Shown here piece by piece: positions 37,927 to 59,240 of a stretch of DNA of 64,000 bases (positions are counted from its first letter, which is position 1; every line of letters begins with the position of its first letter). The translations under genes and the position numbers were made by a program. Source of the stretch: an uncultured Latescibacterota bacterium (GTDB lineage: Bacteria; Latescibacterota; UBA2968); assembly GCA_958295785.1 (NCBI GenBank), contig OY282377.1, positions 5,210,896-5,274,895 of the forward strand, given 5' to 3'. Under the pieces are notes generated by a model. It saw nothing but the letters and a program-made list of their open reading frames with translations, ran no database searches and was not told the origin of the DNA.

Positions 37927-38029
37927 TGGCACTCCTTTGGCGATAAATGGGTTGCGTTGAACGGCACAGAAAGCTATAAATATACCAAAGGATGTTTTGT
38001 CAAGCAATGTTTCTGAAAGGAAGGGCAAA

Positions 38030-38992
38030 ATGGAGGAGCGCGTGCAGATTGTAGTGCCGGGCGATGAACCCATGCAGATCGCGGGGTCGCCTCATCTCGA
38101 TAAATTGCAACCTTATGGCGATGTGGTGCTCTACGATACGCGCCCTGCGTCATTGGAAGAGAAAATCGCACGGGTGCAAGACGCCGATCTGATCATGAAC
38201 ACGCGCGGCGCAGTCACATGGGGCGAGGCCGAGTTTTGCCACTTGCCAAATTTGAAGATGATCACAACCTGTTCGATTGGCACGGATATGTTCGATTTGG
38301 AGGCCGCAAAAACGCACGGGATTGTGATTTGCAACCAGCCGGGCAGAACCGCTCCGGTGGTGGCAGAGCACATTTTCGGGCTGATGTTCGCCGTTGCAAA
38401 ACGCGCGGCGTATTTCACCGCAGCGATGAAAAAAGGGGGCTGGCCTCGGATGGACAATGCGATGCTTCAGGGCAAAACCCTGGGGATCATCGGCATGGGC
38501 AATACCGGTGCGGAGATGGCGCGCCTCGCGCGGGCCATTGGCATGGAGGTGATCGCGTGGACCTTTCACCCATCGCTTGAGCGGGGCGAAAAACTCGGCG
38601 TGCGATTCGTCGAATGGGACGCGCTGCTCGAAACCGCCGATGTGATCAGCTTACATGTGGCACTGACAGAGGAGACAAAAGGGATGATCGGGAAGGCCGA
38701 GTTGGACAAGATGAAAACGGGCGCGTTGTTATTGAACGGGGCACGCGGCGCGATTGTCGATACAGACGCGCTCGCGGACGCGCTACATCGCGGGCATATC
38801 GGCGGGGCGGGCATCGATGTGTACGAGGAAGAACCCACGCCATCCGATCATCCCCTTTTTGCGTGCGAACAAGTGGTGCTCACGCCGCATTGTGCCGATA
38901 TGACCCCCGAAGGCGTGGATTTGCTCAACAGCGGCGCAGTGGAAAATGTGATCGCATTTTTGGAAGGCCGCACGCAGAATGCGGTGGTTTAA
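38030..38992 (+). CDS. D-isomer-specific 2-hydroxyacid dehydrogenase
   Basis: 320 residues from ATG 38030, with AAAGGAAGGG 6-8 nt upstream. The NAD-binding Rossmann motif is [20 protein letters not shown] (about 143-162). Catalytic residues: Arg in [13 protein letters not shown], Glu in DVYEEEPTP and His in [11 protein letters not shown]. The family includes phosphoglycerate and glyoxylate/hydroxypyruvate reductases; lack of an ACT domain argues against a regulated SerA. Substrate uncertain. Confidence 0.9.
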
Positions 38993-39064
38993 CGCAGTGG
39001 TCAGTGGTTAGTTCCCGCCCAACCCCGCAACCCAAAGGTGAGAGGTAAGATGCGAGGATAGAAA

Positions 39065-39090
39065 CGTAGGGGCGGTGCCCCGTGCCCGCT
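39065..39090 (-). repeat. Palindromic element copy with tail
   Basis: GCGAGGATAGAAACGTAGGG then GCGGTGCCCCGTGCCCGC, the reverse-complement of the 25840 form, in the 134 bp between the dehydrogenase and asd. It is preceded by CAGTGGTCAGTGGTTAGT (38996), so both repeat families occur side by side. Confidence 0.8.
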
Positions 39091-39126
39091 CCAGGAGTCA
39101 ATCCCTCAAATCCCGTCAATCCCGAA

Positions 39127-40203
39127 TCAAATATATCCTTCTCGCGTCAAGAGTTCGGCCATGAGGACTGCGCCGCCGGCTGCGCCGCGCACGGTGTTGT
39201 GGCTGAGGGCGATGAATTTGTAGTGAAAAATGGGGTCTTCGCGCAGGCGCCCAAGGGTAATGCCCATGCCATTTCCCGCGTCGCGGTCCAAGCGCGTCTG
39301 CGGTCGGTCATCGCCTTTGAGGTACGCGAGAAATGTTTTGGGCGAGGAGGGCAGGCCCAATGCTCTGGGGTCGCTTTTGAAATTCTGCCAACGTGCGAGG
39401 ATGGCTTCGGCTTTGGGCTTTTTGTCGAACGAGACAGAGACGGCGGCCATGTGTCCATCGGTGACCGGAACCCGAACGCATTGGGCAGAAATGACGGGCT
39501 TGCGCGTGGGCACAATTTCGCCCTTGACGATGTGGCCCCAAATTTTGTGGGGTTCGCTCTCGCTTTTTTCTTCTTCTCCGCCGATATAGGGGATGATGTT
39601 GTCCATCATTTCCGGCCATGATGCAAAGGTTTCTCCCGCGCCGGAGATGGCCTGATAGGTGCATACAGAGGCTTTGGACGGGCCAAATTCTGACAAGGCG
39701 TGCAAGGCCGGGACGTAGGGCTGAATGGAGCAGTTGGGTTTGACGGCGATAAAGCCGCGTTGGACGCGCAGGCGTTTGCGCTGCGCCGGGATGATTTCCG
39801 CGTGCAACGGGTTGATTTCCGGCAAGAGCATGGGCACATCCGGGGTCCAGCGGTGCGCCGAATTATTGGAAATGACCGGGGTTTCCGCTTTTGCGTAATT
39901 TTCTTCGAGGGGGCGGATATCCTCTTTTTCCATGTCGAGGGCGCAGCAGACAAAATCGACCTGAGACGCAATGGCGTCGATTTCCCGCACGTTTTGGACA
40001 ACGAGGTCAGAGGCCGTTTGGGGCACGGCAACATCGGGTTGCGTCCATCGGCCTGTTACAGCTTCGCGGTACGTTTTGCCAGCGGAACGCGGACTGGCTG
40101 CCACCGCGGCGATTTCAAACCAGGGATGATCGGCGAGCAAGGTGACAAAGCGTTGCCCGACCATGCCGGTCGCGCCGAGAACGCCAACTTTGAGCTTGGA
40201 CAT
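39127..40203 (-). CDS. asd: Aspartate-semialdehyde dehydrogenase
   Basis: 358 residues from ATG 40203 (MSKLKVGVLGATGMVGQRFV), AAAGGAAAA upstream. NADP motif GATGMVG (10-16), catalytic Cys in AVKPNCSIQPYVPAL, and substrate residues in ISGAGETFASWPEM with HKIWGHI. Its length and KPNCSIQ motif match the archaeal/eukaryotic-type Asd clade. It reduces aspartyl phosphate toward lysine, threonine, methionine and diaminopimelate. It is preceded by a lysine riboswitch with a terminator, so transcription should fall when lysine is abundant. Confidence 0.95.
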   Translation of the reverse strand: MSKLKVGVLGATGMVGQRFVTLLADHPWFEIAAVAASPRSAGKTYREAVTGRWTQPDVAVPQTASDLVVQNVREIDAIASQVDFVCCALDMEKEDIRPLEENYAKAETPVISNNSAHRWTPDVPMLLPEINPLHAEIIPAQRKRLRVQRGFIAVKPNCSIQPYVPALHALSEFGPSKASVCTYQAISGAGETFASWPEMMDNIIPYIGGEEEKSESEPHKIWGHIVKGEIVPTRKPVISAQCVRVPVTDGHMAAVSVSFDKKPKAEAILARWQNFKSDPRALGLPSSPKTFLAYLKGDDRPQTRLDRDAGNGMGITLGRLREDPIFHYKFIALSHNTVRGAAGGAVLMAELLTREGYI

Positions 40204-40334
40204 CGGTTTTCCTTTCTGCGGATCTGAAATGCAACCACCTGAGAACACAGATAGATAAACACAAATAAATACGGATGGTTAGGCGTTTGTCCGTTCTGCA
40301 TCGCATCAGGAGTTGCAGGTGAATTTTGTTGCGA

Positions 40335-40377
40335 AAATAAAAACAGCCGGTGAGCCAAGGTAAAGGCCCGCCGACTG
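40335..40377 (-). terminator. Attenuator terminator of the lysine riboswitch
   Basis: In the asd sense, CAGTCGGCGGGCC (40377-40365) pairs, with G-T wobbles, with GGCTCACCGGCTG (40356-40344), followed by TTTTTATTTT (40343-40334). The loop contains most of the 3' strand of the aptamer P1 helix, giving the expression platform that links lysine binding to termination. Confidence 0.85.
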
Positions 40378-40571
40378 CCATGCGGAGACCACCCTCAAGA
40401 GAGCGCTTCACGGGATCATCGCCCGCGACAGTCCAGCAGATGTTATCTGCTGCCCCAGCCAAAAGCCCAGCGGAGGGACATTTGGCTTCGGCATCCCATC
40501 CCTTTCACCTGACTTACAGATCCGCTTTCTCGTGCCAGATTACTGATGATGGGACGCGCCTCTACCCTTGG
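40355..40571 (-). promoter_or_regulatory. Lysine riboswitch (L box) upstream of asd
   Basis: Reading the minus strand: P1 is CCAAGGGTAGAG pairing with CTTTACCTTGG (12 pairs incl. G-U). The conserved core follows: AGAGGCGCG, CAGTAATCTGGCACGAG, GTCAGGTGAAAGGGATG, GATGCCGAAG, TTTTGGCTGGGGCAGCAG and TCTTGAGGGTGGTCTCCGC. The GGTGAAAGGG, GCCGAAG, GGCTGGGG and GAGGGTGGTCTC blocks are L-box hallmarks. Aptamer of about 217 nt, normal for the class. It lies 150 nt before the asd start. Confidence 0.93.
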
Positions 40572-40630
40572 TGGAGAAAAACGTCACATATTCCCCATAT
40601 TTTGTCAACTTGAAAATGCGCGGTCGGTTG

Positions 40631-40659
40631 TTGACACGCGGGAAATTGTAGCGTATTGT
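40631..40659 (+). promoter_or_regulatory. Candidate sigma-70 promoter
   Basis: TTGACA at 40631-40636, 17-bp spacer, TATTGT at 40654-40659. It could start the transcript of the sulfatase homologue at 40999, leaving a 330-nt leader. Pattern match only. Confidence 0.35.
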
Positions 40660-40794
40660 AATACGCTTGCGAGGTAATTAGCTTTCAGCCCCCACCTAAC
40701 CGCCCAAAGCGATGTATGGGCTTACCGCTGACCACTACGAAAGACGCGAAAGGGCAAACCGATGGGGATTGGCTCCTGACCCCTGCTTTTCGCT

Positions 40795-40823
40795 TCGGGC
40801 GGGCACAGGGGCCGCGCCCCTAC
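40795..40823 (+). repeat. Palindromic element copy
   Basis: CGGGCGGGCACAGGGGCCGC then GCCCCTACG; 39 bp later the microsatellite begins. Confidence 0.8.
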
Positions 40824-40861
40824 GGTTTCACATCTCGATTTTAGGGGTGGTGGGGTGGACT

Positions 40862-40924
40862 GACTGCTGACTGCTGACTGCTGACTGCTGACTGCTGACT
40901 GCTGATCGCTGATCGCTGATCGCT
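40862..40924 (+). repeat. 7-bp microsatellite, 9 units
   Basis: Six exact copies of GACTGCT (40862-40903) followed by three of GATCGCT (40904-40924). The two unit types differ by a swap of adjacent bases, so the array likely grew in two steps. It lies 75 bp upstream of the sulfatase homologue. Confidence 0.95.
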
Positions 40925-40998
40925 AACCTACGAGAAGCCCTTCACCTGAAGGCGGTGGTCAGTCCGATCAATTATTTGAATCAAACGAGGAGGACATC

Positions 40999-42405
40999 AT
41001 GAATATGGTGGTGATTTGCTGCGATACATTTCGCGCGGATATTGTTGGCGAGGGCAAAAAGTTGAGCCATGTGAAAACCCCGCATTTGGATCAACTCGCT
41101 TCTGACGGACTGGTTTTTGACCGCTGTTTTGCCGAAGGCTTGCCAACGATTCCGTTTCGGCGGTGCGTGTTCACGGGTATCCCGTCTTTTCCGTGGCGAT
41201 TCAACACGCCGAATGAAGGGCTTCAGCCCGCAGGCCAGGGCTGGCATCCCATCCCGCCAGAGCAAGATACATTGGCAGAACGCCTGCACGATGCGGGCGT
41301 TGTCCCGGGCTTGGTCGCAGACACGTATCACATGTTTAAGCCCACGCAGAATTTCACCCGGGGCTTTTTGTCCTGGCGATTTATTCGCGGGCAGGAACAA
41401 GATGGATATCGCTCAGGCCCCCTGTCGCGCATCGATCTCGCCGCGCATGTGCGGGATGGCGATGCCGATCCCAAAAAGCACGCGGTGATCGTGCAGTATT
41501 TGCTCAATATGCTGGACAGGCAAGAGGGCGAAGAAAATTATCTCGCCGCACAAGTGTTCCGCGAGGCGTCGCAATGGGTGGAGGACAATGCGCGAAACAA
41601 GCCGTTTTTTTTGTGGATCGACAGCTTTAGCCCGCACGAGTTGTGGGATCCGCCCCGGCAGTATGCCGATGCGTATTTTTCCGATCCTTCGGTGAAGGAT
41701 TACATCCACCACAGCGCGTTGCATGTGCCCGAGGCCACAGATGCGGAAATCGAGCGTACAAAGGCGTTGTACATGGGTTATGTCACCTTTGTGGATCGCT
41801 GGATAGGGCATTTGCTGGAGACCATTGATCGGCTGAATTTGCGAGACGATACTGTGGTGATGTTCATTTCTGATCACGGCACGCAACTGATGGACAAAGG
41901 GCGGTTTGGCAAGGGGGGCAACGCGCTGTTTCCCTTTAATACGCAGATCAACTGGATCGTTCGGCATCCGGATGGGCCGTGCGGGCAACGCACGGATATC
42001 TGGACGCAAAATCAGGACATCACCCCGACCATTCTCAATTTGCTTTCCGTTGACCATGACGCGATAGATGGGTTCGATGCGTGGGCTTGTGCGACAGGTG
42101 GGGCCGAACCCGCTCGGGATTATATTACAACGGGCTGGGGCACGAATTTCAATGTGCGGGATGATCGCTTCAGCGTTCACATGGATGTGGGGACAAGCGA
42201 TCTAGAGGTTGTGGTTCACGATCTGCACGCCGATGCCGACGAAGCACATCCCCTGACCGATCCGCCCAATGAGGTGGTCGTGCGAGCCATAGAACGAGCG
42301 CGTTCCACAATTGGCGATTTCCCCGATGTATTCAGCCAATACAGACAGCGACACGCAGCGCGGGCCATGCGAACGTTTCTGAGCAAATACAATTTGGGTG
42401 GATAA
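40999..42405 (+). CDS. Sulfatase-superfamily hydrolase with Thr in the nucleophile position
   Basis: 468 residues; CGAGGAGG lies 8 nt before the ATG. Metal site CCDTFRAD (D9) and FISDHGTQLMDKGRFGKGG near 290 are typical of the superfamily. The nucleophile motif, C/S-x-P-x-R in sulfatases, reads T50-I-P52-F-R54 (GLPTIPFRRCVFTG), so no formylglycine can form there. Thr is the nucleophile in related phosphodiesterases (NPP branch), so phosphate- or phosphonate-ester cleavage is a possibility. No signal peptide. Its transcript may start far upstream behind the microsatellite. Confidence 0.8.
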   Translation: MNMVVICCDTFRADIVGEGKKLSHVKTPHLDQLASDGLVFDRCFAEGLPTIPFRRCVFTGIPSFPWRFNTPNEGLQPAGQGWHPIPPEQDTLAERLHDAGVVPGLVADTYHMFKPTQNFTRGFLSWRFIRGQEQDGYRSGPLSRIDLAAHVRDGDADPKKHAVIVQYLLNMLDRQEGEENYLAAQVFREASQWVEDNARNKPFFLWIDSFSPHELWDPPRQYADAYFSDPSVKDYIHHSALHVPEATDAEIERTKALYMGYVTFVDRWIGHLLETIDRLNLRDDTVVMFISDHGTQLMDKGRFGKGGNALFPFNTQINWIVRHPDGPCGQRTDIWTQNQDITPTILNLLSVDHDAIDGFDAWACATGGAEPARDYITTGWGTNFNVRDDRFSVHMDVGTSDLEVVVHDLHADADEAHPLTDPPNEVVVRAIERARSTIGDFPDVFSQYRQRHAARAMRTFLSKYNLGG

Positions 42406-42487
42406 AACGAGATGGAAGTTTAGCCACAAAAGGCACGAGCGGGGTACAACTGGCGATAGCCCGTTCAAAGGCACAAAAGGCGCGTGT

Positions 42488-42514
42488 GTGTAGGGGCGAT
42501 GCCCCGTGCTCGCC
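42488..42514 (-). repeat. Palindromic element copy
   Basis: TGTAGGGGCGATGCCCCGTG then CTCGCCC; close to the copy at 21591, including its AAAGATACAAG right flank, so flanks were duplicated too. Confidence 0.8.
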
Positions 42515-42605
42515 CAAAGATACAAGAAGCAGTGGTCAGTGGTCAGTGGTCGGTCCACTCACAACCACCCCAAAGGCAATCATGGATGAAATGGATTGCC
42601 CGGAA

Positions 42606-42634
42606 TGTAGGGGCGGTGTCCCCGTGCCCGCCCG
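42606..42634 (-). repeat. Palindromic element copy
   Basis: TGTAGGGGCGGTGTCCCCGT then GCCCGCCCG. Confidence 0.8.
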
Positions 42635-42704
42635 AAGCGAAAAGCAATCACATAAGAACACAGATGAAAGGCGAGAGGCAAGTGCAGAGGGCAAAAAAAT
42701 AAAA

Positions 42705-42732
42705 TGTAGGGGCGTTGCCCCCGTGCTCGCCC
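42705..42732 (-). repeat. Palindromic element copy
   Basis: TGTAGGGGCGTTGCCCCCGT then GCTCGCCC; it ends 16 bp before the CsiD-like start, so its hairpin could affect that gene's translation start region. Confidence 0.8.
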
Positions 42733-42748
42733 GTGGAAAGGAGAGACA

Positions 42749-43639
42749 TTGAACTATGCGATTGAACAACATCTCGATCACCATCGCCTGCATCACATCA
42801 CCATTGGCACCGATGCCGCGGCGAGATTTGTGCGCGAGGTCGCAGATTTGTCTGAACAGCGATTGACATACATGCCCTATTTGCGATTGATCGCCGCCGA
42901 TAGCCTGCAACAAATCGTCGGCGTGGATTTTGCCGTGCAAATCAACGCGCTGGTGAGAGACCGCGCAACGGGCGGGTTCACCCTTGCGGTCGAGGGCGGG
43001 TTCGAGACGATGGATCAGCGCGTGGCATTTGGCACAGCGGTTTCGCACCTGATCGGGATGCCCAATTTTGACGATATGACCGGGAATTATTACGCCTGTT
43101 TTGAGGTGCGGGATACGGACGACAGCGATTCGTATTTGCGCCAAGCCTATCGCCTGTTCACGCTCCACACCGATGGCACGTACATCCGCGAGCGCACCGA
43201 TTGGATTTTGATGATGAAGATGGCCGAGCGCGATGCGGTGGGTGGCGAATCGCGCCTGCTACATTTGGACGATTGGGAGGCGTTGGAGCACTATGCCCGG
43301 CATCCGCTGGCCGCGTTGCCCATGACCTATCAATCGCCGCCGAGTAAGAATTATCCCGTAGTGATGGAGAAGCCGACGTTCTACGAACATCATGGCAAAG
43401 CCTGCGTGTGTTTTATCGATCAATTTGTGTATCCCAAAACCATCTCTCAGGCCCGATACCTGCGCGATCTGTCCGATTCGATGGAAGCGTCGTCTGGGGT
43501 AGTCTCGTTGCCCTTGCCGCCCGATCACCTCGTAGTGCTCAACAACCATTTCTGGCTACACGGGCGCGAGGCGTTTGAAAAACACCCCGACCTCTACCGC
43601 CTGTTGATGCGGCAACGGGGCTATTTTAGAGAGGAATGA
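42749..43639 (+). CDS. glaH: CsiD/GlaH-family glutarate 2-hydroxylase (Fe(II)/2-oxoglutarate)
   Basis: 296 residues, TTG start with AAAGGAGAGAC before it. CsiD landmarks run through the chain: VSHLIGMPNFDDMTGNYYA, SDSYLRQAYRLFTLHTDGTY with H140-T-D142 iron ligands, TDWILMMKMAE, LLHLDDWEALEH, FIDQFVYPKT and NNHFWLHGREAF with distal H271. GlaH hydroxylates glutarate to L-2-hydroxyglutarate in lysine catabolism. The usual partner lhgO and upstream gabDT genes are not in the window, so the pathway is elsewhere or the enzyme works on another diacid. Confidence 0.85.
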   Translation: MNYAIEQHLDHHRLHHITIGTDAAARFVREVADLSEQRLTYMPYLRLIAADSLQQIVGVDFAVQINALVRDRATGGFTLAVEGGFETMDQRVAFGTAVSHLIGMPNFDDMTGNYYACFEVRDTDDSDSYLRQAYRLFTLHTDGTYIRERTDWILMMKMAERDAVGGESRLLHLDDWEALEHYARHPLAALPMTYQSPPSKNYPVVMEKPTFYEHHGKACVCFIDQFVYPKTISQARYLRDLSDSMEASSGVVSLPLPPDHLVVLNNHFWLHGREAFEKHPDLYRLLMRQRGYFREE

Positions 43640-43687
43640 CTGGACGAATTGTTAGGGCTTGTTTTTATGGACAAAAAGGATATTTTA

Positions 43688-44005
43688 ATGGGACCGGGAC
43701 AAAGGGAAGGAAAATTAAAGGAAACAAATGAATATATCGGATGGTTTGATGGTTTGCGGGATGAAAGGTAAAAGGGGCTATTCGGGCAAGGGTTCGTCAG
43801 GTTTCGATGGGAAATTGGGGAGATTGGAAACATGTAGGAGAGGAGGTTTTTGAGTTCCGTATTCATCGCAGGCCCGGTTATCGGGTATATTTTACTTTGC
43901 ATGGGGGGCATTAGTTTTGCTTTTGGGGGGTACGAAAGGGGCGAGAAGGGTACACAAAAGGATATTGGAAAGGCGCAGGAATTGGCGCGTGATTTGAGGA
44001 GGTAG
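43688..44005 (+). pseudogene. HigB/RelE-type toxin (Gp49-like) with three -1 frameshifts
   Basis: Homology is spread over three frames: KETNEYIGWFDGLRDER, then GAIRARVRQVSMGNWGDWKH and VGEEVFEFRIHRRPGYRVYF, then LVLLLGGTKGA and TQKDIGKAQELARDLRR with TAG at 44003. The shape matches the ~100-residue addiction-module toxins of the RelE/HigB superfamily. Each frame change is cured by adding one G to a run of Gs (near 43768, 43907 and 43948). Either the gene is dead or the runs are consensus errors. The antitoxin-like gene starts 2 bp later. Confidence 0.7.
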
Positions 44006-44007
44006 AA

Positions 44008-44310
44008 ATGGCAAAAACACAGACGAGGCCGTGGGACCCGATTAGGGGGTTGGATACGGCAGAGGAAATTGTTGGGTATATTGATGAGGCTTTGGCGTTG
44101 GACGATTTGCAATTGTTTGAGGTTGTTTTGAAGGATATAGGGTGTGCTGTTGAGCGATATAAAGTTCAAAAGGAAGATATTATTCGAGTCGTTGAACATG
44201 TTGCTATTGAAAGTGAGAAGGTTCAAAAGCATAAGGACCGTATTGTTGAGGCATGTGTTGGGCGTAAAGGGATTTTGAATGTTGTGCAGTCTTATACTAA
44301 GAAGCCCTAA
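44008..44310 (+). CDS. HigA-like antitoxin candidate
   Basis: 100 residues. The N-terminus TRPWDPIRGLDTAEEIVGYI with DEALALDD is the opening of HigA/DNA-binding addiction antitoxins (WDPxxxL...I..YL..AL..DD). The usual following helix-turn-helix (IARxTGLSREsLYK) is not seen; the C-terminal ~55 residues are Lys/Val-rich and unlike the family, so the end may be altered. The plus strand here is strikingly poor in C. Adjacent to the broken HigB-like gene. Confidence 0.55.
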   Translation: MAKTQTRPWDPIRGLDTAEEIVGYIDEALALDDLQLFEVVLKDIGCAVERYKVQKEDIIRVVEHVAIESEKVQKHKDRIVEACVGRKGILNVVQSYTKKP

Positions 44311-44475
44311 CAAAAGAAATCAAGCGTCTGAAACAGATGAGTGAACAGCCGATGGAGAGGAACGCCTCATGGATGTCCGCTCTGCGCTCGTCGCGCACCC
44401 GCAGTCGCGGAACTGGCGGAGCCAGGCCAGAGTCCGCTCAACGACCCACCGGAAGGAAAAAAAGAAAGGAAACGC

Positions 44476-44727
44476 ATGCCTATCCCCATCATTGACCCGT
44501 CACAAGCCACCACTAACGAAAGACTGACAAAGCTGGAAGCGATTGCCGAACAACACACACTCGCCCTTGCCGAGATCAAAGCACATATCGCAAGGGTTGA
44601 AGATCGCATCGCGAGGGTAGAAGATCACATGCAAAAGTCTTTTCGTTGGCTCGTTGGGATTCTCTTTACAATACTTCTCGCCATCTTGGGCGCGACAGTG
44701 ACTATTTTGCTGAACTTGCCCAAGTAA
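44476..44727 (+). CDS. Array unit 1: coiled-coil tail-anchored membrane protein, 83 aa
   Basis: Starts MPIPIIDPSQATTNERLTKL; the longer frame from 44341 is spacer. A conserved N-terminus (1-27), a helical coiled-coil segment (28-56) with one IARVEDR heptad module duplicated, then the helix WLVGILFTILLAILGATVTI (57-76) and LLNLPK end. Predicted to be a tail-anchored inner-membrane protein with the coiled coil in the cytoplasm. Function unknown. Confidence 0.85.
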   Translation: MPIPIIDPSQATTNERLTKLEAIAEQHTLALAEIKAHIARVEDRIARVEDHMQKSFRWLVGILFTILLAILGATVTILLNLPK

Positions 44728-44775
44728 CCCCCTCACCCCATCGCACATCCTGTATCCTCAAAAAAAAAGAAACGC

Positions 44776-45018
44776 ATGCCTATCCCCATCATCGACCCGT
44801 CACAAGCCACCACTAACGAAAGACTGGCAAGGCTTGAAGCGATTGCCGAACAACATAAGCAAGGCTTGATCAGTCTTGAAGATCGCATGGACAAGCGCAT
44901 GTCCAATATTGAAGATCACATGCAAAAGTCTTTTCGTTGGCTCGTTGGGATTCTCTTTACAATACTTCTCGCCATCTTGGGTGCGACGGTGACTATTTTG
45001 CTGAACTTGCCCAAGTAA
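44776..45018 (+). CDS. Array unit 2: 80 aa
   Basis: Same ends as unit 1. After IAEQH the 14-residue stretch found in unit 5 is replaced by KQGLISL (7), followed by the hendecad MDKRMSNIEDH. The only unit with a distinct coiled-coil sequence, so it may pair differently. Confidence 0.85.
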   Translation: MPIPIIDPSQATTNERLARLEAIAEQHKQGLISLEDRMDKRMSNIEDHMQKSFRWLVGILFTILLAILGATVTILLNLPK

Positions 45019-45076
45019 CCCCCTCACCCCATCGCCCCTCCCTGTGTATCCGTAAAGTAAAAAATAAAGGAAACGC

Positions 45077-45361
45077 ATGCCTATCCCCATCATTGACCCG
45101 TCACAAGCCACCACTAACGAAAGACTGACAGGGCTTGAAGCGATTGCCGAACAACACACACTCGCCCTTGCCGAGATCAAAGCACATATCGCAAGGGTTG
45201 AAGATCGCATGGACAAGCGCATGTCCAATATTGAAGATCGCATCGCGAGGGTAGAAGATCACATGCAAAAGTCTTTTGGTTGGCTCGTTGGGATTCTCTT
45301 TACAATTCTCCTCGCCATCTTGGGCGCGACGGTGACTATTTTGCTGAACTTGCCCAAGTAA
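45077..45361 (+). CDS. Array unit 3: 94 aa, longest coiled coil
   Basis: Carries both modules: heptad IARVEDR twice around the hendecad MDKRMSNIEDR. It is 18 residues (7+11) longer than unit 4. Reads FGWLVG rather than FRWLVG before the membrane helix, as does unit 5. Confidence 0.85.
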   Translation: MPIPIIDPSQATTNERLTGLEAIAEQHTLALAEIKAHIARVEDRMDKRMSNIEDRIARVEDHMQKSFGWLVGILFTILLAILGATVTILLNLPK

Positions 45362-45418
45362 TCTCCTTACCCCATCGCACATCCCTGTGTATCCGTAAGG
45401 TAAAAAAAAAGGAAACGC

Positions 45419-45649
45419 ATGCCTATCCCCATCATTGACCCGTCACAAGCCACCACTAACGAAAGACTGGCAAGGCTTGAAGCGATTGCCGAACAACACA
45501 CACTCGCCCTTGCCGAGATCAAAGCACATATCGTAAGGGTTGAAGATCACATGCAAAAGTCTTTTCGTTGGCTCGTTGGGATTCTCTTTACAATACTTCT
45601 CGCCATCTTGGGCGCGACAGTGACTATTTTGCTGAACTTGCCCAAGTAA
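45419..45649 (+). CDS. Array unit 4: 76 aa, shortest
   Basis: Minimal coiled coil HTLALAEIKAHIVRVEDHMQ without extra modules; one substitution (V for A) in the heptad. Its membrane helix and tail are identical to unit 1. Confidence 0.85.
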   Translation: MPIPIIDPSQATTNERLARLEAIAEQHTLALAEIKAHIVRVEDHMQKSFRWLVGILFTILLAILGATVTILLNLPK

Positions 45650-45696
45650 CCCCCTCACCCCATCGCACATCCTGTATCCTGAAAAAAAAGAAACGC

Positions 45697-45960
45697 ATGC
45701 CTATCCCCATCATTGACCCGTCACAAGCCACCACCAACGAAAGACTGGCAAGGCTTGAAGTGATTGCCGAACAACACACACTCGCCCTTGCCGAGATCAA
45801 AGCACATATCGCAAGGGTTGAAGATCGCATGGACAAGCGCATGTCCAATATTGAAGATCACATGCAAAAGTCTTTTGGTTGGCTCGTTGGGATTCTCTTT
45901 ACAATTCTCCTCGCCATCTTGGGCGCGACAGTGACTATTTTGCTGAACTTGCCCAAGTAA
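45697..45960 (+). CDS. Array unit 5: 87 aa
   Basis: Equals unit 4 plus one 11-residue module MDKRMSNIEDH. A longer frame from 45568 runs through unit 4 and its spacer and is rejected as a start. LEVIAEQH in place of LEAIAEQH. A strong terminator follows the array. Confidence 0.85.
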   Translation: MPIPIIDPSQATTNERLARLEVIAEQHTLALAEIKAHIARVEDRMDKRMSNIEDHMQKSFGWLVGILFTILLAILGATVTILLNLPK

Positions 45961-46013
45961 CTCCCTCACCCCATCGCCCCTCCCTGTGTATCCGTAAAAA
46001 AAAGAACCCCATA

Positions 46014-46054
46014 CCAAAAGGTCTCGTTCCAAATGCCGGAATGAGACCTTTTGG
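46014..46054. terminator. Bidirectional terminator after the array
   Basis: CCAAAAGGTCTCGTTCC (46014-46030) pairs with GGAATGAGACCTTTTGG (46038-46054), 7-nt loop. Between the array (plus) and the beta-helix protein gene (minus). Confidence 0.85.
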
Positions 46055-46081
46055 GCATTAAAAACACCCCTGACCACTGCT

Positions 46082-48613
46082 TTAATTCGGCGTGGGAAAA
46101 GGTGGGAGCGGCGTATTGCGGAGGGTATCCCATTGTGTGCGGAGGGCGTTGAGCCATGGGGGAAGGGTTTGAAGGCGCGATTCGAGTTGGGCTTCAAAGA
46201 GCGATTCCGGCTCAACTGGGCTACCATTGGATTCGAGCACTTGGAGCGCGCCTGTGTTAAACGTGGCGGGGTCCCCGTGAAAGCCGACGATGATGGGTTG
46301 CACAAACCGGTCGCGCGCATTGCCCGGCCGCCAAAAATCGTAGTGCGTCAGATTGCCCCGATGGTTGAAATTCCAGAGGACGTAATGCTTGAGGTGATTG
46401 GGAAAATTGGCGATAGACGCGCCGCTGCCATACAAAATCCCGCCGTTGACGCGGTCGAGCAAGTTGGCATAGGGTTGGGCGCCGTGCGCGTCGATGCGCT
46501 GATCGGGTTGCATGTCATAACGCCAATACACCGTGCCGACCGAGCGGCTGCTCGTGCCCGGCCCGTGCCAATGGCCCGATCGGTCTTCTGATAGCCCGAT
46601 CCACACGCCGTAACCGCCATTGCTGGCAATGGACGAATGCCCCCTGTTGCCGGCTTGCGTGACGTGATAGACCGATACGGCAGAACTCGACCCGATGTGC
46701 AGGGCGCGGTTGCAGTTGATGAAAGAAACGCGCCGAATCCAGGAATTGACGCATCGGTTGAGCTGGAGCAAACTCCAGCCGCCGTCGTGGATGGCGTCTT
46801 TGTGGTGGACAAATTCATCCAACCACGATCCGTGAAAGCCGATGTCCTCTATGCCGATTTCCGCGAGGTGCTGATATTCGCGCACGGTCCAGTTGTAATT
46901 GCGATTGACGTTTGTGTGCAGGGGTTCGTTGAGGCGAATCCGATTGCCCTGAATGTCGGCAATGCTGTGCTTTTCGCGCACTTGAATCCCATTGGCGATC
47001 ATGGTCGTCCAGATCGATTCCGCTCGGTGTGGCGCGAGGAACTCGGGAATTGCTGCGGTGCTGTTTGTATAAAGCGTAATCCATTGTCCGGGCGTGAGGT
47101 TGGAAGCGTTGTCTAAAATGAGATCAAAGGTTTCGCGGGCCGCGTTTTCCGCGATGTTCGCCAAGCGTCTGTCGCTCGTATTCGCGGGTTGGAAGATGAA
47201 CATGTAGGGCGATGTCCACAATTGATCGGGATTGGTCGGCGGCATGTGGTTGACCTGCCGGATGATGGTGCCCCTCGCTCGGCTGCCGCTTCCTCTGAGG
47301 ACGATGTTGTTGCCGCGGATGTAGATGGACTGGTTGTTGTCGGCGTCGGTATTGACCAAAAATTCCCCGGGCGGAAAGAAGACAATGCCGCCGTTGTTTT
47401 GCTCGGCAGCGCGAATGGCGCGTTGAATGGCGGGTTGGTCAGACAGGCCGTCATTGGGAATGGCGCCGTAATCCGCGACATTGAATACGTCGGCGCGAAT
47501 GTCGGGAACGGGTTTGCCGAAATAGTGATAGCCCGCGTAGGAAAAATCGGGCAAAATGGGTTCTGTGTTGTTCTGTTTGGCGGTTACAAATTGTTGCCAG
47601 GTGCGCGACTGGCCGGTTTGCGGGACGTAAGAAGTCCACTTGTTGCGCGTTTGGACAGAGCCCGCAACCTGCGCCCAAATTGGGATCGGGTAGGTCTCGG
47701 TTTGATCGCGTCCGGCGAGGAGCGTCTGGGGGATGGGCACGCGAATTTGCGTCGTCCCCGCGGGGACGGTGTGCGTGGATAAAATCTGCGCGTCGGCTCC
47801 CACCTCGATGATCAACGAGTCTGCGGTGTGATTTTCAAATGTGATGGGGATGTGCCACGCGTTGCCGTGCGATTCGAACCCGGCGGCGAAGACGAGAAAA
47901 TCGCCAAAACCAATGGCCCCGTCAGCATCGAAATCATAGGCCGGGTCGTAGGCCGGGTTGCCCCGCGCTGCGCCGAATTTCTTTCTAAAGAGAATGAAAT
48001 CGCCAAAGCCGACGGTGGCGTCGCCATCGAAATCGAGGCGGGCACTGCCGTCTGTTCCTTGCACGGGCGCATCGACTCGCCATGAAAAGGTCTGATCAAC
48101 CGTTGCGATGTGATCGATGAACAGGCGCGTCGTTGAATTTTGACGGGTGACGGTTCTAAATGTGATGTACCGCTTGTTGTAATCGGGTTGCCCTCCCCAG
48201 TCGTCGTATTGCGGTTTGCCCAGTTCCACAACCGCGAGTTGCCAACTCCGCGGCGGCGTTTGCCCCTCCCAGATCGTATAAACCGCTTCCATGCCCCCCA
48301 CCAACGGGTAGTTGCGAACCTTGATTTTCAAATCTTGCAGGCCAGTGCCCTCTGCTTTCCACCAGAAACTCAGGCTGTATTTGTCCGCGATGTTTTGCCC
48401 TGTCTGGCGGAAGTCGTAGGTCAAAAATCCGGTGCGGCCCGCTGGCATGGACGCCGCAATGGCAAAACGCCCCTCTGACGCATCTTTGGACAACTGGACA
48501 CTGCGGGGCCATCCCGATAGGCTTTCGCAACGGGTCAAGGTGTGAACGGGATCACTGGCAAAACAAGCGCGTGTCCACAAAAATGTAAGGGTGAGTATTA
48601 GGGTTAATCGCAT
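46082..48613 (-). CDS. Secreted beta-helix (pectate-lyase-superfamily, DUF4955-like) protein with dockerin-like repeats
   Basis: 843 residues from ATG 48613 with GGAGG 7 nt before. Signal peptide 1-20 (MRLTLILTLTFLWTRACFAS). Residues ~25-180 look like a carbohydrate-binding beta-sandwich. Two Asp-rich dockerin/EF-hand-like repeats follow: RLDFDGDATVGFGDFILF and DFDADGAIGFGDFLVF. The pectate-lyase-type start FNVADYGAIPNDGLSDQPAI (~390) opens a right-handed beta-helix with GGIVFFPPGEFLV and DIGFHGSWLDEFVHH. It probably binds or cleaves an acidic polysaccharide outside the cell. The catalytic residues are not identified. Confidence 0.82.
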   Translation of the reverse strand: MRLTLILTLTFLWTRACFASDPVHTLTRCESLSGWPRSVQLSKDASEGRFAIAASMPAGRTGFLTYDFRQTGQNIADKYSLSFWWKAEGTGLQDLKIKVRNYPLVGGMEAVYTIWEGQTPPRSWQLAVVELGKPQYDDWGGQPDYNKRYITFRTVTRQNSTTRLFIDHIATVDQTFSWRVDAPVQGTDGSARLDFDGDATVGFGDFILFRKKFGAARGNPAYDPAYDFDADGAIGFGDFLVFAAGFESHGNAWHIPITFENHTADSLIIEVGADAQILSTHTVPAGTTQIRVPIPQTLLAGRDQTETYPIPIWAQVAGSVQTRNKWTSYVPQTGQSRTWQQFVTAKQNNTEPILPDFSYAGYHYFGKPVPDIRADVFNVADYGAIPNDGLSDQPAIQRAIRAAEQNNGGIVFFPPGEFLVNTDADNNQSIYIRGNNIVLRGSGSRARGTIIRQVNHMPPTNPDQLWTSPYMFIFQPANTSDRRLANIAENAARETFDLILDNASNLTPGQWITLYTNSTAAIPEFLAPHRAESIWTTMIANGIQVREKHSIADIQGNRIRLNEPLHTNVNRNYNWTVREYQHLAEIGIEDIGFHGSWLDEFVHHKDAIHDGGWSLLQLNRCVNSWIRRVSFINCNRALHIGSSSAVSVYHVTQAGNRGHSSIASNGGYGVWIGLSEDRSGHWHGPGTSSRSVGTVYWRYDMQPDQRIDAHGAQPYANLLDRVNGGILYGSGASIANFPNHLKHYVLWNFNHRGNLTHYDFWRPGNARDRFVQPIIVGFHGDPATFNTGALQVLESNGSPVEPESLFEAQLESRLQTLPPWLNALRTQWDTLRNTPLPPFPTPN

Positions 48614-48680
48614 GGTCAATCCTCCGTAACGGCTTACAACTTCGACAGGAGTTTATCCCGATCCGCCTTGTATCTCGCCT

Positions 48681-48712
48681 TTTCGGGCGGGCACGGGGGC
48701 ACCGCCCCTACG
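48681..48712 (+). repeat. Palindromic element copy
   Basis: TCGGGCGGGCACGGGGGCAC then CGCCCCTACG, identical in its core to the copy at 2565. Confidence 0.85.
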
Positions 48713-48971
48713 TTTTTATTTTCGCATCTTTTTTTTCCTTCGTGGATCAAATCATCCGCAATCTAATATACCCATCAAAGCATGGGTTGGACAAGTGTTT
48801 TGCCAGATTGTCTGCTTGGGGACAGGCAGGCAGATCGGTCGGTGTCAAAATGGGCGGTTTTGTGGCGATATGTCAGCGGGGGCGTAGGGCATAAAATCAA
48901 AAAAAAGAAGTCAAAAATGTTAAAGCCTTAATTTACAGCGCGTTATGAAACACAAAAAAAATCACAAAGTT

Positions 48972-48987
48972 TGGCACGGGTGTTGCA
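48972..48987 (+). promoter_or_regulatory. rpoN-dependent promoter: Sigma-54 (-24/-12) promoter for hsp20
   Basis: TGGCACGGGTGTTGCA matches the consensus TGGCAC-N5-TTGCA at every conserved position, with GG and GC exactly 10 bases apart. It lies 58 bp before the hsp20 ATG, giving a ~45-nt leader. No enhancer site was identified upstream. Confidence 0.8.
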
Positions 48988-49045
48988 AAAGAAAAGGGGC
49001 GAGAGAAATCATCAATCGTTCCACAACTCACCAAGGAGGTAGGAG

Positions 49046-49465
49046 ATGGCGCTGATTCGTTGGCAACCCCGTGAGTCCTTCGCATTTCACCGCGAGTTGG
49101 GCAATTTGCTGGACACTTGGACGGGCTATGGCGCGGGTTGGCACCCCCGCGTGGATGTGGCCGAATCGGAGCATGACTTCACGGTTCACGCCGAACTGCC
49201 CGGGATTCGCAAGGAAGACATCCAGGTGACGCTCGAAGACAATACGCTCACCATCGAGGGCGAGCGGAAGTGCGAAGACGAGCAGAGGGACAAGCAGTTC
49301 TACCGCAGGGAACGCGCGTACGGGACCTTCAAACGTTCCTTTGGCTTGGGCACAGAAGTCGATACCGACAAAATTGCCGCGACTTACAAGGATGGGATTT
49401 TGACCCTGACCTTGCCCAAGTCCGAAGCGGCAAAGCCCCGCCAGATTGACGTCACAGTGTCTTAA
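49046..49465 (+). CDS. hsp20: Small heat-shock protein (Hsp20/alpha-crystallin)
   Basis: 139 residues with AAGGAGGTAGGAG before the ATG. The alpha-crystallin domain (~45-135) shows PRVDVAESEHDFTVHAELPG, IRKEDIQVTLEDNTLTIEGE, FKRSFGLG and the A-x-x-x-x-G-I-L-T-L motif AATYKDGILTLTLPKSE. A cytoplasmic holdase that passes clients to disaggregases; clpB follows 216 bp downstream. The sigma-54 site upstream suggests non-standard control. Confidence 0.96.
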   Translation: MALIRWQPRESFAFHRELGNLLDTWTGYGAGWHPRVDVAESEHDFTVHAELPGIRKEDIQVTLEDNTLTIEGERKCEDEQRDKQFYRRERAYGTFKRSFGLGTEVDTDKIAATYKDGILTLTLPKSEAAKPRQIDVTVS

Positions 49466-49596
49466 AGGCGGGAGATGTAAGAAGGGAGAAGGCCATCCGA
49501 CACCGCTCCAAGGCAAGGTATGGGCTTCCCGCAGGTAAGACGCGAGAGGATTGGGCGGATTGTTCACCTTTCGCGTCTTGCTTTTGGGGGTGAAGC

Positions 49597-49623
49597 GGAC
49601 AGGCACAGGGGCCTGTCCCTACG
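49597..49623 (+). repeat. Divergent palindromic element copy
   Basis: CGGACAGGCACAGGGGCCTG then TCCCTAC. Both arms changed together (GGACAGG with CCTGTCC), so hairpin pairing is kept although the sequence drifted: a compensatory change. Confidence 0.65.
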
Positions 49624-49681
49624 GGTGATGGGGGAGGGGCCGATAGCCGATAGCTGACTGCTTTTCGCTGGAGAATCAAAA

Positions 49682-52273
49682 ATGGACATGAACAAATTGA
49701 CCGAAAAATCGCACGAGGCCGTGCAGCAGGCGCAGGAGATCGCGTTGCGATATGGGCATTGGGAAGTGGATGGGGAACATCTGTTCGCCGGTTTGATCGA
49801 CCGAGAAGATGGCTTGCCGCGTCGCATGCTCTCGCGCATGCAAGTGCCATGCGATGCCCTCAAATCGGAGATTGAAAACGCACTGGCGCGGTTGCCCAAG
49901 GTCTCAGGCCCTGGCGTTGAGCGCGGCAAAATTTACGCGACGCCGCGTTTTCAAAAGCTGTTTTTGGCAGCCGAAGAGGAAGCGCGCAGGCTGAGGGATG
50001 AATACGTCTCGGTCGAGCATCTGTTGTTGGCCCTGATCGGCGAGGGCGATCAAACGCCGGCGGGGCGCATCTTGAAGCAGTACGACATCACGCGGGACAA
50101 TTTTCTGTCTGTGCTGATGCAGGTGCGCGGCAATCAGCGCGTGACGAGTGCCCATCCCGAAGTGGCGTATGAAGCCCTCGAAAAATACGGCGTTGATCTC
50201 GTTGCCGAAGCGCGCAAGGGCAAATTGGATCCCGTGATTGGGCGCGATAGTGAAATTCGCCGCGTGATTCGCATTTTGTCGCGCAAGACAAAAAATAATC
50301 CGGTGCTGATCGGCGAACCGGGCGTGGGCAAAACCGCGATTATCGAGGGCTTGGCACAGCGGATTGTGCGCGGCGATGTGCCCGAGTGGCTCAAAGATCG
50401 GTCGGTCTTTTCGCTGGACATGGGCGCGCTGATGGCCGGGGCCAAATACCGAGGCGAATTTGAAGAGCGGTTGAAAGCCGTGTTGAACGAGATCAAACAA
50501 AGCGATGGTCACATCTTGTTGTTCATCGACGAGGTTCACACCATTGTGGGCGCGGGCAAAACAGAGGGATCGACAGATGCGGGCAATATGCTCAAGCCGA
50601 TGCTGGCGCGCGGGGAATTGCACTGCATTGGGGCGACAACGCTGGATGAACACCGCCAATATCTCGAAAAAGACGCCGCGTTGGAACGCCGCTTTCAACC
50701 CGTGATGGTCGATGCGCCGTCTGTGGAGGATTCCATTTCGATTTTGCGCGGTTTGCGCGAGCGGTTCGAGGTTCACCACGGAGTGCGGATTCAGGACAAC
50801 GCGCTGGTCAATGCAGTGGTGTTGGCAGATCGCTACATTTCGGATCGGTTTTTGCCCGACAAGGCCATCGATCTCGTGGATGAAGCCTGCGCGACGGTGC
50901 GTACAGAAATCGATTCCATGCCGTCTGAGTTGGACGCCGTGACCCGCCGCGTGATGCAACTCGAAATTGAAGACGCCGCGCTGCAACAAGAAAGAGATCA
51001 GGCGAGCCGAGAGCGGTTGGCAGAACTTCAAAGGGAATTGGCCGATTTGCAGGAGCGGGCAGATGTCATGCGCGTGCAGTGGGAAAGCGAAAAGCGAGCC
51101 CTCGATGAGGTGCGGGGCTTGCGCGAGGAAATTGAACGGACCAAGCGCGAGGTCGAAGCGGCCGAGCGGCAGTACGATCTCCATCGCGCCGCCGCGTTGA
51201 AGCACGGTATCTTGCCCGGGTTGGAACAAAAACTCAAAGTTGCCGAAAGTCTGTCCACATCGGACAACCGCTTGTTGCGCGAGGAGGTGACAGAAGGGGA
51301 AATCGCCGAGACCGCGTCGCGGTGGACGGGTGTGCCGGTTGCGCGATTGGTGGAAGGCGAACGCAAAAAATTGCTGCGATTGGACGATATTTTGCACGAG
51401 CGCGTCATCGGGCAAGACGAGGCCGTGTCTTTGGTGGCCGATGCGGTGATTCGCGCACGCACGGGGATCAAAGACCCGCGTCGTCCCATCGGTTCGTTCA
51501 TCTTTTTGGGGCCGACCGGCGTTGGCAAGACCGAATTGGCGCGCACCTTGGCCCACGCGCTTTTCGACAGCGAAGACAGTGTGATCCGCATCGACATGAG
51601 CGAATACATGGAAAAGCACGCGGTGTCGCGGTTGATCGGCGCGCCGCCGGGGTATATCGGCTATGGCGAAGGCGGGCAGTTGACAGAGGCCGTGCGCCGC
51701 AAGCCGTATTCGGTGATTTTGTTCGACGAGGTCGAAAAAGCCCACTGCGATGTGTTCCATGTGTTGTTGCAGTTGCTCGACGAGGGTCGCCTGACCGATG
51801 CCCAAGGGCATGTGGTGGATTTTAAGAATACCTTGGTGATTATGACGTCGAACATCGGGTCGCCCTATATGCTCGAGGGCGTGACCGAGGCCGGCGATAT
51901 CCGTGCATCTGCCCGCGATGCGGTGATGGCGGAATTGCGACGGCATTTCAGGCCCGAATTTCTCAACCGCATAGATGATATCGCGTTGTTCAAACCCCTG
52001 TTGTTGTCCGAGATCGCGCGCATTGTGGATCTGCTGATTGCGGATTTGAACAACCGATTGTCCGACCGGCAAATTGGCCTCTCACTGACGGCGGATGCAA
52101 AGGCGTTTATCGCCCGCAGTGGATTTGATCCCATCTTTGGCGTGCGCCCCCTCAAGCGGTTCTTGCAACGCGAATTGGAGACGCGCATTGGCCGCGCCTT
52201 GCTCAGTGGCGATATCGCAGACGGATCGCAGATTGAAGTGGAGGTGGCAGATGGGGAATTGGTGGTAAAATAG
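49682..52273 (+). CDS. clpB: ATP-dependent disaggregase ClpB
   Basis: 863 residues, the normal ClpB length. Clp_N domain 1-150, first AAA module with Walker A GEPGVGKT (211-218), then the long coiled-coil M domain (~400-525, rich in Glu/Arg: [20 protein letters not shown]), which separates ClpB from ClpA/C. The second AAA module has GPTGVGKT near 610 and [11 protein letters not shown]. It rescues aggregated proteins with Hsp70 and small Hsps in the cytoplasm. It lacks a separate obvious promoter and could be read with hsp20. Confidence 0.95.
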
Positions 52274-55843: not shown

Positions 55844-56041
55844 ATGGAGAACCCAAAAACAATTGAACACGAGGGCCGCATCTCGCGGCTCGAAGAGATC
55901 ATTGAACAGTTGGGCGTGCGGATGGTGACCATTGAAACGCGCCTGACCTCAATTGAGCGCGGCATCGAGAGCATCAACCGAAAAATTTGGGCAGGATCGA
56001 TTATCATTATCGGCTTGTTGACCAAGATCGCGTTTTTTTGA
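55844..56041 (+). CDS. Small coiled-coil tail-anchored membrane protein, 65 aa
   Basis: ATG 55844 chosen with GGAGG at 55831-55835. Layout: Glu/Arg-rich heptads EGRISRLEEIIEQLGVRMVT then IETRLTSIERGIESIN, and a terminal membrane helix WAGSIIIIGLLTKIAFF. The same design as the five-gene array at 44.5-46 kb, with no clear sequence identity. Stands just before the methyltransferase; no known function. Confidence 0.75.
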   Translation: MENPKTIEHEGRISRLEEIIEQLGVRMVTIETRLTSIERGIESINRKIWAGSIIIIGLLTKIAFF

Positions 56042-56073
56042 GGTGGTGAAAATAAAAGCAACCTGAATGCATG

Positions 56074-56129
56074 TGCTGAACCCTGGCCAGGCTTGATTCA
56101 GTAACACAACTTCAGGCCAGGCTTCAGCA
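56074..56129. promoter_or_regulatory. Inverted repeat, candidate operator of the C5 methyltransferase
   Basis: TGCTGAACCCTGGCC (56074-56088) and GGCCAGGCTTCAGCA (56115-56129) are reverse complements with one mismatch, 26 bp apart. The region has three CCWGG words. It ends 19 bp before the ATG, where a repressor would block transcription or ribosome entry. Confidence 0.55.
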
Positions 56130-56148
56130 TATACTTGGAGGTGGTTGT

Positions 56149-57210
56149 ATGGACAAATTACACAATCGACCCAATGCACAAGTGTTCGATATGTTTTGCA
56201 GCATTGGCGGCTTGACCTACGGGTTGCAGCGGGCTGGCATCTCGGTCAACGCGGGGCTGGACATTGATGGTTCGTGCCGTTTCGCCTATGAAAAAAACTG
56301 CGAGGCGACTTTTATTGAAGCGGATATTCGGGAAATCTCTTTTGCGGATGTTGCAACCTATTTTAGTGATGCGGAATATCGCGTACTGGTCGGTTGCGCG
56401 CCTTGTCAGCCGTTCTCCAGCCATACGAAATTGAGGTCTTATCAAGCGGATGCGAGATGGAATCTGATCGATGAATTTCTGCGAGTAATCCTCGAGGGTC
56501 GGCCGGAGATCGTTTCAATGGAAAATGTGCCCCAACTCATGGGTAAATCTATTTACGATAAATTTAAGCGCGAGTTGACCGATGTGGGGTATAAAGTCTC
56601 TGATGGCGTTCTATCCTGTGCCCAGTTCGGCGTTCCGCAAAGTCGGTCCCGTTTGGTTATGCTGGCGTCTTTGTTGGGACAGATTGATATGCCGAACCCC
56701 ACAACCCATAGCCACCCAACAGTAAGACAGGTAATCGGGCACTTAGAGCCTCTCGAGCCGGGGCAATCAAGCGCGACCGATCCCCTGCATGTTTGCTCTC
56801 GATTAGCACCGATCAACCTAAAACGCATCCGAGCGTCAAAGCCTGGGGGGAGTTGGCGCGATTGGCCGGCGGAATTATTGCCCAATTGCTACAAAAAGGC
56901 CAGCGGCTCGACCTATGGAAGCGTCTATGGCCGTATGCAGTGGGACAAGCCCGCGCCGACGCTGACCACGCAGTTCTATCGCTATGGCACCGGACGCTAT
57001 GGGCATCCCGAACAAGACAGGGCCTTGAGCTTTCGGGAAGGCGCGATCCTCCAAACCTTTCCCGAAGAATATCAGTTTATCGCACCGGGCGAGAAAGCGT
57101 CCTTCTCGAAAATTGGCCGTCAAATCGGCAACGCGGTTCCGCCATCTTTGGGGGTTGCGATTGGCAAAACGATTATAGACCATCTGCGAAAGAGGAAAAA
57201 GAATGCCTAA
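56149..57210 (+). CDS. dcm: DNA (cytosine-5-)-methyltransferase
   Basis: 353 residues with GGAGGTGG before the ATG. Motif I FDMFCSIGGLTYGLQRAGIS, motif IV GCAPCQPFSSHTK with the catalytic Cys, motif VI ENVPQL, motif VIII QSRSRLVMLAS and motif X QIGNAVPPSLGVAIG are all present and in order; GSTYGSVYGRMQWDKPAPTL and RYGHPEQDRALSFREGAILQ lie in the target-recognition half. Recognition site unknown. It overlaps the MORC-like ATPase by 8 bp, forming one restriction-modification operon. Confidence 0.95.
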   Translation: MDKLHNRPNAQVFDMFCSIGGLTYGLQRAGISVNAGLDIDGSCRFAYEKNCEATFIEADIREISFADVATYFSDAEYRVLVGCAPCQPFSSHTKLRSYQADARWNLIDEFLRVILEGRPEIVSMENVPQLMGKSIYDKFKRELTDVGYKVSDGVLSCAQFGVPQSRSRLVMLASLLGQIDMPNPTTHSHPTVRQVIGHLEPLEPGQSSATDPLHVCSRLAPINLKRIRASKPGGSWRDWPAELLPNCYKKASGSTYGSVYGRMQWDKPAPTLTTQFYRYGTGRYGHPEQDRALSFREGAILQTFPEEYQFIAPGEKASFSKIGRQIGNAVPPSLGVAIGKTIIDHLRKRKKNA

Positions 57211-59182: not shown

Positions 59183-59240
59183 ATAAAACCCTGTCCTGAT
59201 TTCTCTATCCTTCCCTCCATCCACGCCAAAGGAGTTCCCC

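What the first reader, a model, noticed from the sequence alone, without database searches (positions are those of the whole stretch)
44455..46004. Tandem array of five coiled-coil membrane mini-proteins whose lengths differ only by heptad and hendecad modules
Five adjacent genes encode 83, 80, 94, 76 and 87 residues with nearly identical N-termini (MPIPIIDPSQATTNERL) and membrane tails. All length differences are +7 (IARVEDR), +11 (MDKRMSNIEDR/H) or +18; unit 2 differs by a 7-residue swap. Seven and eleven are the two periods that keep a coiled coil in register, so selection seems to allow growth only in whole coiled-coil turns. Ends are held fixed while the rod varies: a possible molecular ruler, hetero-oligomer code or surface-distance system. 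I know of no named system with this layout.
Basis: partly seen in the sequence, partly recalled or inferred. Interest (0 to 1): 0.85.

Follow-up and report, generated by a model that had tools for sequence, protein, structure and literature searches.

The report
Tandem coiled-coil membrane mini-protein genes
A sponge-associated bacterium carries five adjacent, nearly identical genes for tiny membrane-anchored rods whose lengths differ only by whole turns of the helix; the same rule holds in relatives across its class, which suggests that evolution guards the angle between rod and membrane anchor and leaves the rod's length free.

Summary
Five tandem genes encode 83, 80, 94, 76 and 87 residues with fixed ends and rods that differ by 7- and 11-residue modules. 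The genome is one 5.66-Mb contig of a Latescibacterota-type bacterium. The family has no name of its own but is spread over the class (31 of 47 genomes). Its rod (head Glu to membrane-proximal Trp) takes lengths one helical turn apart: period 3.62, vector strength 0.88 against 0.24 expected, confirmed on members not used to set the rule. The strict '7 or 11' rule is too narrow, because +4 (7 to 11) also occurs. A second, unrelated array in a sister species has rods of 30, 37 and 48, and orthologues of it carry a single 30, 37 or 48. Length is free and helix phase is kept, which argues against a ruler. The window array sits in a 2.4-kb insertion between genes that abut in seven sister species, next to toxin-antitoxin and IS5 relics. 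Closest family: XhlA (PF10779), below its cut-off for all five units. Best reading: accessory, tail-anchored coiled-coil oligomers, expanded by recombination, with indels filtered by register. Cellular function is not established.

The parts
44476..44727 (+). unit 1, 83 aa, rod 37 (two heptads: IARVEDR 44587-44607, IARVEDH 44608-44628)
44776..45018 (+). unit 2, 80 aa, rod 34 (hendecad MDKRMSNIEDH 44887-44919; replaced and shortened segment before it)
45077..45361 (+). unit 3, 94 aa, rod 48 (IARVEDR 45188-45208, MDKRMSNIEDR 45209-45241, IARVEDH 45242-45262); AlphaFold2 gives one continuous helix, residues 13-90
45419..45649 (+). unit 4, 76 aa, rod 30 (single heptad IVRVEDH 45530-45550)
45697..45960 (+). 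unit 5, 87 aa, rod 41 (IARVEDR 45808-45828, MDKRMSNIEDH 45829-45861)
46014..46054 (.). 17-pair hairpin (A-tract/U-tract stem), probable bidirectional terminator between the array and the convergent gene 46082-48619
   Evidence: -29.1 kcal/mol, z -6.2; not picked up by the simple scan
44337..44455 (-). relic of the C-terminal end of an IS5-type transposase immediately upstream of unit 1
   Evidence: NF033580, E 3.5e-4; the same end in multicopy IS5 copies
43640..46081 (.). accessory insertion holding toxin-antitoxin relic, IS5 relic and the array, between csiD (42749-43639) and the convergent 46082-48619 gene; in seven sister species these two genes are 12-15 bp apart
55844..56038 (+). sixth, diverged coil-plus-membrane-helix mini-protein (65 aa) in the same window

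Best explanation
The array is a recent, accessory expansion of a class-wide family of small tail-anchored proteins: a short disordered start, a helical rod that most likely faces the cytoplasm and forms a parallel coiled coil, and a membrane helix that continues the same helix. Shown: the class-wide family; one continuous predicted helix; heptad/hendecad core spacing; rod lengths quantised in helical turns; variable unit number and rod length among orthologues; insertion of the array into a conserved gene junction next to mobile-element debris. Inferred: the proteins self-associate through the rod and perhaps the membrane helix, so an insertion or deletion survives only if it keeps the hydrophobic seam in fixed phase with the membrane helix. 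New lengths arise by recombination between short repeats inside and between units. The most likely cellular role is a membrane-bound oligomeric adaptor or stress-type accessory protein whose rod length is not itself read out.
For: Family in 31 of 47 genomes of the class, 9 members of the MPIP subgroup in this genome. Rod lengths: best period 3.62, R 0.88 for 35 lineage-length combinations against null mean 0.24, maximum 0.55 in 5000; the N-terminal segment shows none (R 0.32, p 0.25). Out-of-sample projection 0.75 against -0.01 +/- 0.16, maximum 0.62 in 20,000. Core at head offsets +6, +10, +13, +17, +20, +24 and at -2, -6, -10, -13, -17 from Trp; small residues at Trp +3, +7, +11, +14 in about 90%; stalk phase relative to Trp with vector strength 0.96. 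One helix 13-90, mean pLDDT 85. Independent tandem loci: rods 30/37/48 and 45/34. Insertion into a junction that is empty in sister species. Nonsynonymous divergence does not exceed synonymous in any of the ten unit pairs.
Against: No interaction, localisation or expression data. No conserved partner gene was found in the flanks. The oligomeric state is untested, because AlphaFold2 was run on one chain. The hydrophobic periodicity of single units is weak; the signal is clear only over the family. The membrane-helix small-residue face lies well away from the rod's core face, so the two need not form one interface (inference). Two members are one residue off the series. Tail length also shows a mild periodicity (p 0.01), so it is not a clean control.
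Confidence: 0.6

Rival explanations
1. Length repertoire: the set of rods of different length is itself functional (ruler, spacing set or hetero-oligomer code), and the array is kept to supply several lengths at once.
For: Two independent arrays in different species each hold several distinct rods (37/34/48/30/41 in the window; 30/37/48 in G007), and a third locus holds 45/34. Ends are nearly invariant while rods vary.
Against: Sister species have one unit of 30, 37 or 48, and G006 has two units that are both 37. Spacer coiled coils are conserved in length. The window array is missing at this site in all nine sister species in which both flanking genes were found.
Confidence: 0.12
2. Purely mutational pattern: tandem DNA repeats of 21 and 33 bp expand and contract, and no selection on register is needed.
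For: Modules share GAAGATC(G/A)CAT; unit 3 looks like a recombinant of the two module types; many +7/+11 events are duplications of the neighbouring module.
Against: +4 changes that are not tandem duplications (MDGG in G017; others) keep the same phase, and unrelated subfamilies with different modules share one length series. The N-terminal segment varies without this period.
Confidence: 0.15
3. XhlA-type lysis or membrane-permeabilising protein, a domesticated or decayed phage function.
For: XhlA is the most frequent Pfam match over the family (17 of 30 members, best E 1.2e-7); one relative passes the cut-off (38.2 against 34.7 bits); PHROG hemolysin/holin profiles match weakly.
Against: The five units score at most 15.9 bits. 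Neighbours in the window are metabolic and housekeeping genes, with no endolysin or holin partner recognised. No phage record matches a family member. B. subtilis needs xhlA, xhlB and xlyA together (PMC5589764).
Confidence: 0.1
4. Type I toxin-antitoxin-like tandem repeats (compare the E. coli LDR and QUAD loci, from memory), regulated by antisense RNA.
For: Tandem near-identical small membrane-protein genes in a site that collects toxin-antitoxin genes.
Against: Proteins are 76-94 aa with a long soluble rod; no Rfam match here and no promoter-like site on either strand.
Confidence: 0.05

Closest known systems
Haemolysin XhlA family (PF10779)
   Same: Small protein, N-terminal coiled coil, single C-terminal membrane helix; one family member exceeds the Pfam cut-off.
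   Different: The five units are far below the cut-off, occur in tandem, vary in rod length, and have no holin or endolysin neighbours recognised.
Register-quantised coiled-coil linkers of phytochrome-linked diguanylate cyclases (PadC; PMC9587094)
   Same: Linker length differs by multiples of seven in 54% and by -4 in 38% of members: the same 7 and 4 steps, read as register conservation.
   Different: There the linker joins a sensor to an enzyme and has a known output; here the rod is free at one end and joined to a membrane helix at the other.
SMC coiled-coil arms (PMC5344682)
   Same: Function only in periodic length regimes, with a 3.5-residue component.
   Different: Long arms with a period near 91-100 residues; unrelated proteins.
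Coiled-coil molecular spacers (PMC5082667)
   Same: Simple rods with conserved ends.
   Different: Spacers keep length and lose sequence; this family keeps phase and changes length.
CCDC90-like family (PF07798)
   Same: Coiled-coil stalk with C-terminal membrane anchor (from memory).
   Different: Only one distant family member matches (E 4.6e-4); no match to the five units.

Membership tests
XhlA (PF10779) | score above the curated cut-off (34.7 bits) | tested here: not met
   best of the five units 15.9 bits; one relative, G003:C68, reaches 38.2
XhlA (PF10779) | N-terminal coiled coil plus one C-terminal membrane helix | tested here: met
   continuous helix 13-90; hydropathy maximum 2.57 in the last 24 residues; core spacing
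XhlA (PF10779) | located in a lysis cassette with holin and endolysin | tested here: not met
   window neighbours: csiD and sulfatase by Pfam; pectate-lyase-like, ClpB, pyruvate kinase read from the ORF list; no phage match
Register-conserving coiled coil (as in PadC linkers) | length differences restricted to whole helical turns (7, 11, 4 and sums) | tested here: met
Register-conserving coiled coil (as in PadC linkers) | oligomer formed through the coiled coil | not testable with these tools
   only single-chain prediction available
Molecular spacer or ruler | rod length conserved among orthologues | tested here: not met
   rods 30, 37 and 48 among orthologues in sister species
Type I toxin-antitoxin tandem repeats | antisense RNA antitoxin | tested here: inconclusive
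   no Rfam match to an antitoxin RNA in 38000-52000; no promoter-like site; transcripts not available
CCDC90-like (PF07798) | profile match | tested here: not met
   no match for the five units; one distant family member at E 4.6e-4

The most novel reading that the evidence does not exclude
Latescibacterota of this class use tandem arrays as a generator of rod-length variants: units recombine at module boundaries to yield a phase-matched set of membrane-anchored coiled coils of graded length, which co-assemble, so that the composition of lengths carries function.
Probability: 0.1. Interest if true: 0.75.

Novelty: new variant of a known kind. Interest (0 to 1): 0.5.

Why it matters
Register conservation is known from linkers and long arms. 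Here it appears in one of the simplest possible proteins, a helix with a soluble half and a membrane half, in many natural length variants with near-identical ends. That is a natural experiment on how far a coiled coil outside the membrane is phase-locked to a membrane helix, and it separates phase (kept) from length (free). It also describes an unnamed small-protein family with several copies per genome in this class of bacteria, and an insertion site that collects toxin-antitoxin genes and this array.

Tried and rejected
Pfam and NCBIfam give no match above cut-off for the five units, and PHROGs only weak ones. Solved-structure hits are generic coiled coils. Close relatives in the species-level genome collection and in viral contigs: none for the MPIP subgroup; phage records: none. 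Conserved neighbour genes across subfamilies: only orthologous contigs and the common sulfatase-type genes cluster, so no partner was found. Strain-level comparison of this very array was not possible (one genome per species; metagenome scans not available). Assembly artefact rejected as unlikely: single-contig genome, diverged units. The antisense ORFs over the array were dismissed as mechanical. A five-copy tail-only match proved to lie beside multicopy IS5-type elements.

Full report
WHAT IS THERE. Spacers between units are 48-58 bp, each with an A-rich leader before the start codon. The array is followed by a 17-pair hairpin at 46014-46054 (-29.1 kcal/mol, z -6.2), between it and the convergent gene 46082-48619. 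No promoter-like or terminator-like site lies between units by the simple scan, so one transcript is plausible but untested. AlphaFold2 predicts a single helix, residues 13-90 of unit 3, mean pLDDT 85: rod and membrane helix are one piece.

WHERE IT IS. The window lies in a single-contig genome of 5.66 Mb. Named records that carry family relatives are Latescibacterota MAGs and some labelled Gemmatimonadota (isolates RHO1-3). I take the organism to be a sponge-associated Latescibacterota (inference; one search shows that such sponge symbionts are described).

HOW THE ARRAY GREW. Spacers of one type lie after units 1 and 4, those of another type after units 2, 3 and 5. Units 3 and 5 share 3' coding variants, while units 1, 2 and 4 share the alternative. 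This mosaic points to duplication of multi-unit blocks and recombination among units. All modules end in GAAGATC(G/A)CAT, and unit 3 can be read as a recombinant that carries both module types. Nonsynonymous divergence is at or below synonymous divergence in all ten pairs, in one of them nearly equal; the counts are small.

THE FAMILY. The same genome has four solitary relatives of the MPIP subgroup (C1:2902901, 3255100, 3812801, 4641646). A profile finds the family in 31 of 47 genomes of the class and hardly outside it (two of 17 other genomes of the phylum).

THE LENGTH RULE, TESTED. I measured the rod from the invariant head Glu to the Trp before the membrane helix, without using the alignment of the rod. 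In 55 distinct members it takes 19, 23, 26, 30, 34, 37, 41, 44, 45, 48, 56, 63, 70 and 87. After reducing to one value per lineage and length (35 values up to 60), the best period is 3.62 residues, vector strength 0.88. Shuffles that move each value by up to five residues give mean 0.24, maximum 0.55 in 5000. The segment before the head shows no such period. I then fetched further members and tested the fixed period and phase: projection 0.75 against -0.01 +/- 0.16, maximum 0.62 in 20,000. Two values, 38 and 49, are one residue off. The period matches the natural turn of an alpha helix (about 3.63 in PMC4786415); 7, 11 and 4 are the heptad, the hendecad and the stutter described there. The core pattern is clean over the family: ILVMF at head +6, +10, +13, +17, +20, +24 and at Trp -2, -6, -10, -13, -17, and small residues at Trp +3, +7, +11, +14.

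OTHER ARRAYS AND THE RULER TEST. In G007 a different subfamily (module RYEEDQRAFVN, a pure hendecad) forms a tandem array with rods of 30, 37 and 48; a run of N in it means that the unit count is uncertain. Sister species G003, G008 and G009 have one unit, next to the same enolase-superfamily genes, with rods of 48, 37 and 48 (that of G003 read from its ORF, where the anchor Trp is Cys); G002 and G005 have a single 30; G006 has two units of 37. G046 has a tandem pair with rods of 45 and 34. Length and unit number thus change between species while phase is kept. A ruler or spacer should keep length (PMC5082667), so I rank that idea low. A set of lengths acting together cannot be excluded.

THE INSERTION SITE. 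In seven sister species csiD and the pectate-lyase-like gene are 12-15 bp apart. In this genome 2.4 kb lie between them: a RelE/ParE-type toxin relic split over three frames (TIGR02683 piece, E 1e-13), a 100-aa ORF that resembles its antidote only weakly, an IS5 transposase relic, and the array. In G005 and G008 the same site holds a different pair that looks like VapBC (read by eye). The array is therefore accessory DNA at a site that collects such modules.

FUNCTION. No partner gene is conserved. XhlA is the nearest family, but the units fail its cut-off and lack its lysis partners. My best reading is a tail-anchored, cytoplasm-facing oligomer whose interface phase is fixed relative to the membrane helix. 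Topology (charges) and oligomerisation are inferred. What the oligomer does in the cell remains open; an accessory adaptor or stress role is the guess that fits multicopy, partnerless genes in a mobile site.

VERDICT. Observation confirmed and extended; interpretation partly supported; a new variant of a known kind of constraint in an unnamed protein family.

Noticed in passing
window 43680-44005 (+) and 44008-44310 (+): Degraded RelE/ParE-type (HI1419-like) toxin gene spread over three reading frames, followed by a 100-aa ORF with only a weak antidote match.
   Followed up: partly
L230 and L231 (G005 and G008, csiD to pectate-lyase-like junction): The junction that holds the array here carries a different pair in two sister species, a PIN-type 121-aa ORF and a 62-aa ORF (VapBC-like by eye), and is empty in seven: an insertion hotspot.
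   Followed up: partly
G000:C1 about 1495535, 1502562, 1856400, 1882311, 3837091 (L088-L091): Multicopy element of more than 2.5 kb, mostly 90-96% identical, with an IS5-type transposase end directly followed by a tail fragment of this mini-protein family.
   Followed up: partly
L088 4003-5613 and 10559-11001: Long tandem array of about 126-bp units (42 residues) beside the multicopy element.
   Followed up: no
window 40393-40572 (-): Lysine riboswitch (RF00168, 97 bits) upstream of an ORF at 39127-40248 (-) that reads as aspartate-semialdehyde dehydrogenase.
   Followed up: no
window 40860-40924: Short 7-bp tandem repeat CTGACTG.
   Followed up: no
window 55844-62320 (+): A sixth coil-plus-membrane-helix mini-protein sits just before a cytosine methyltransferase, a GHKL-type ATPase and a restriction-type helicase ORF, read by eye as a defence-like cluster.
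   Followed up: no
L186 and L190 (G040): Members with many KIDATREALE-type hendecad repeats at contig ends, probably much longer rods.
   Followed up: no
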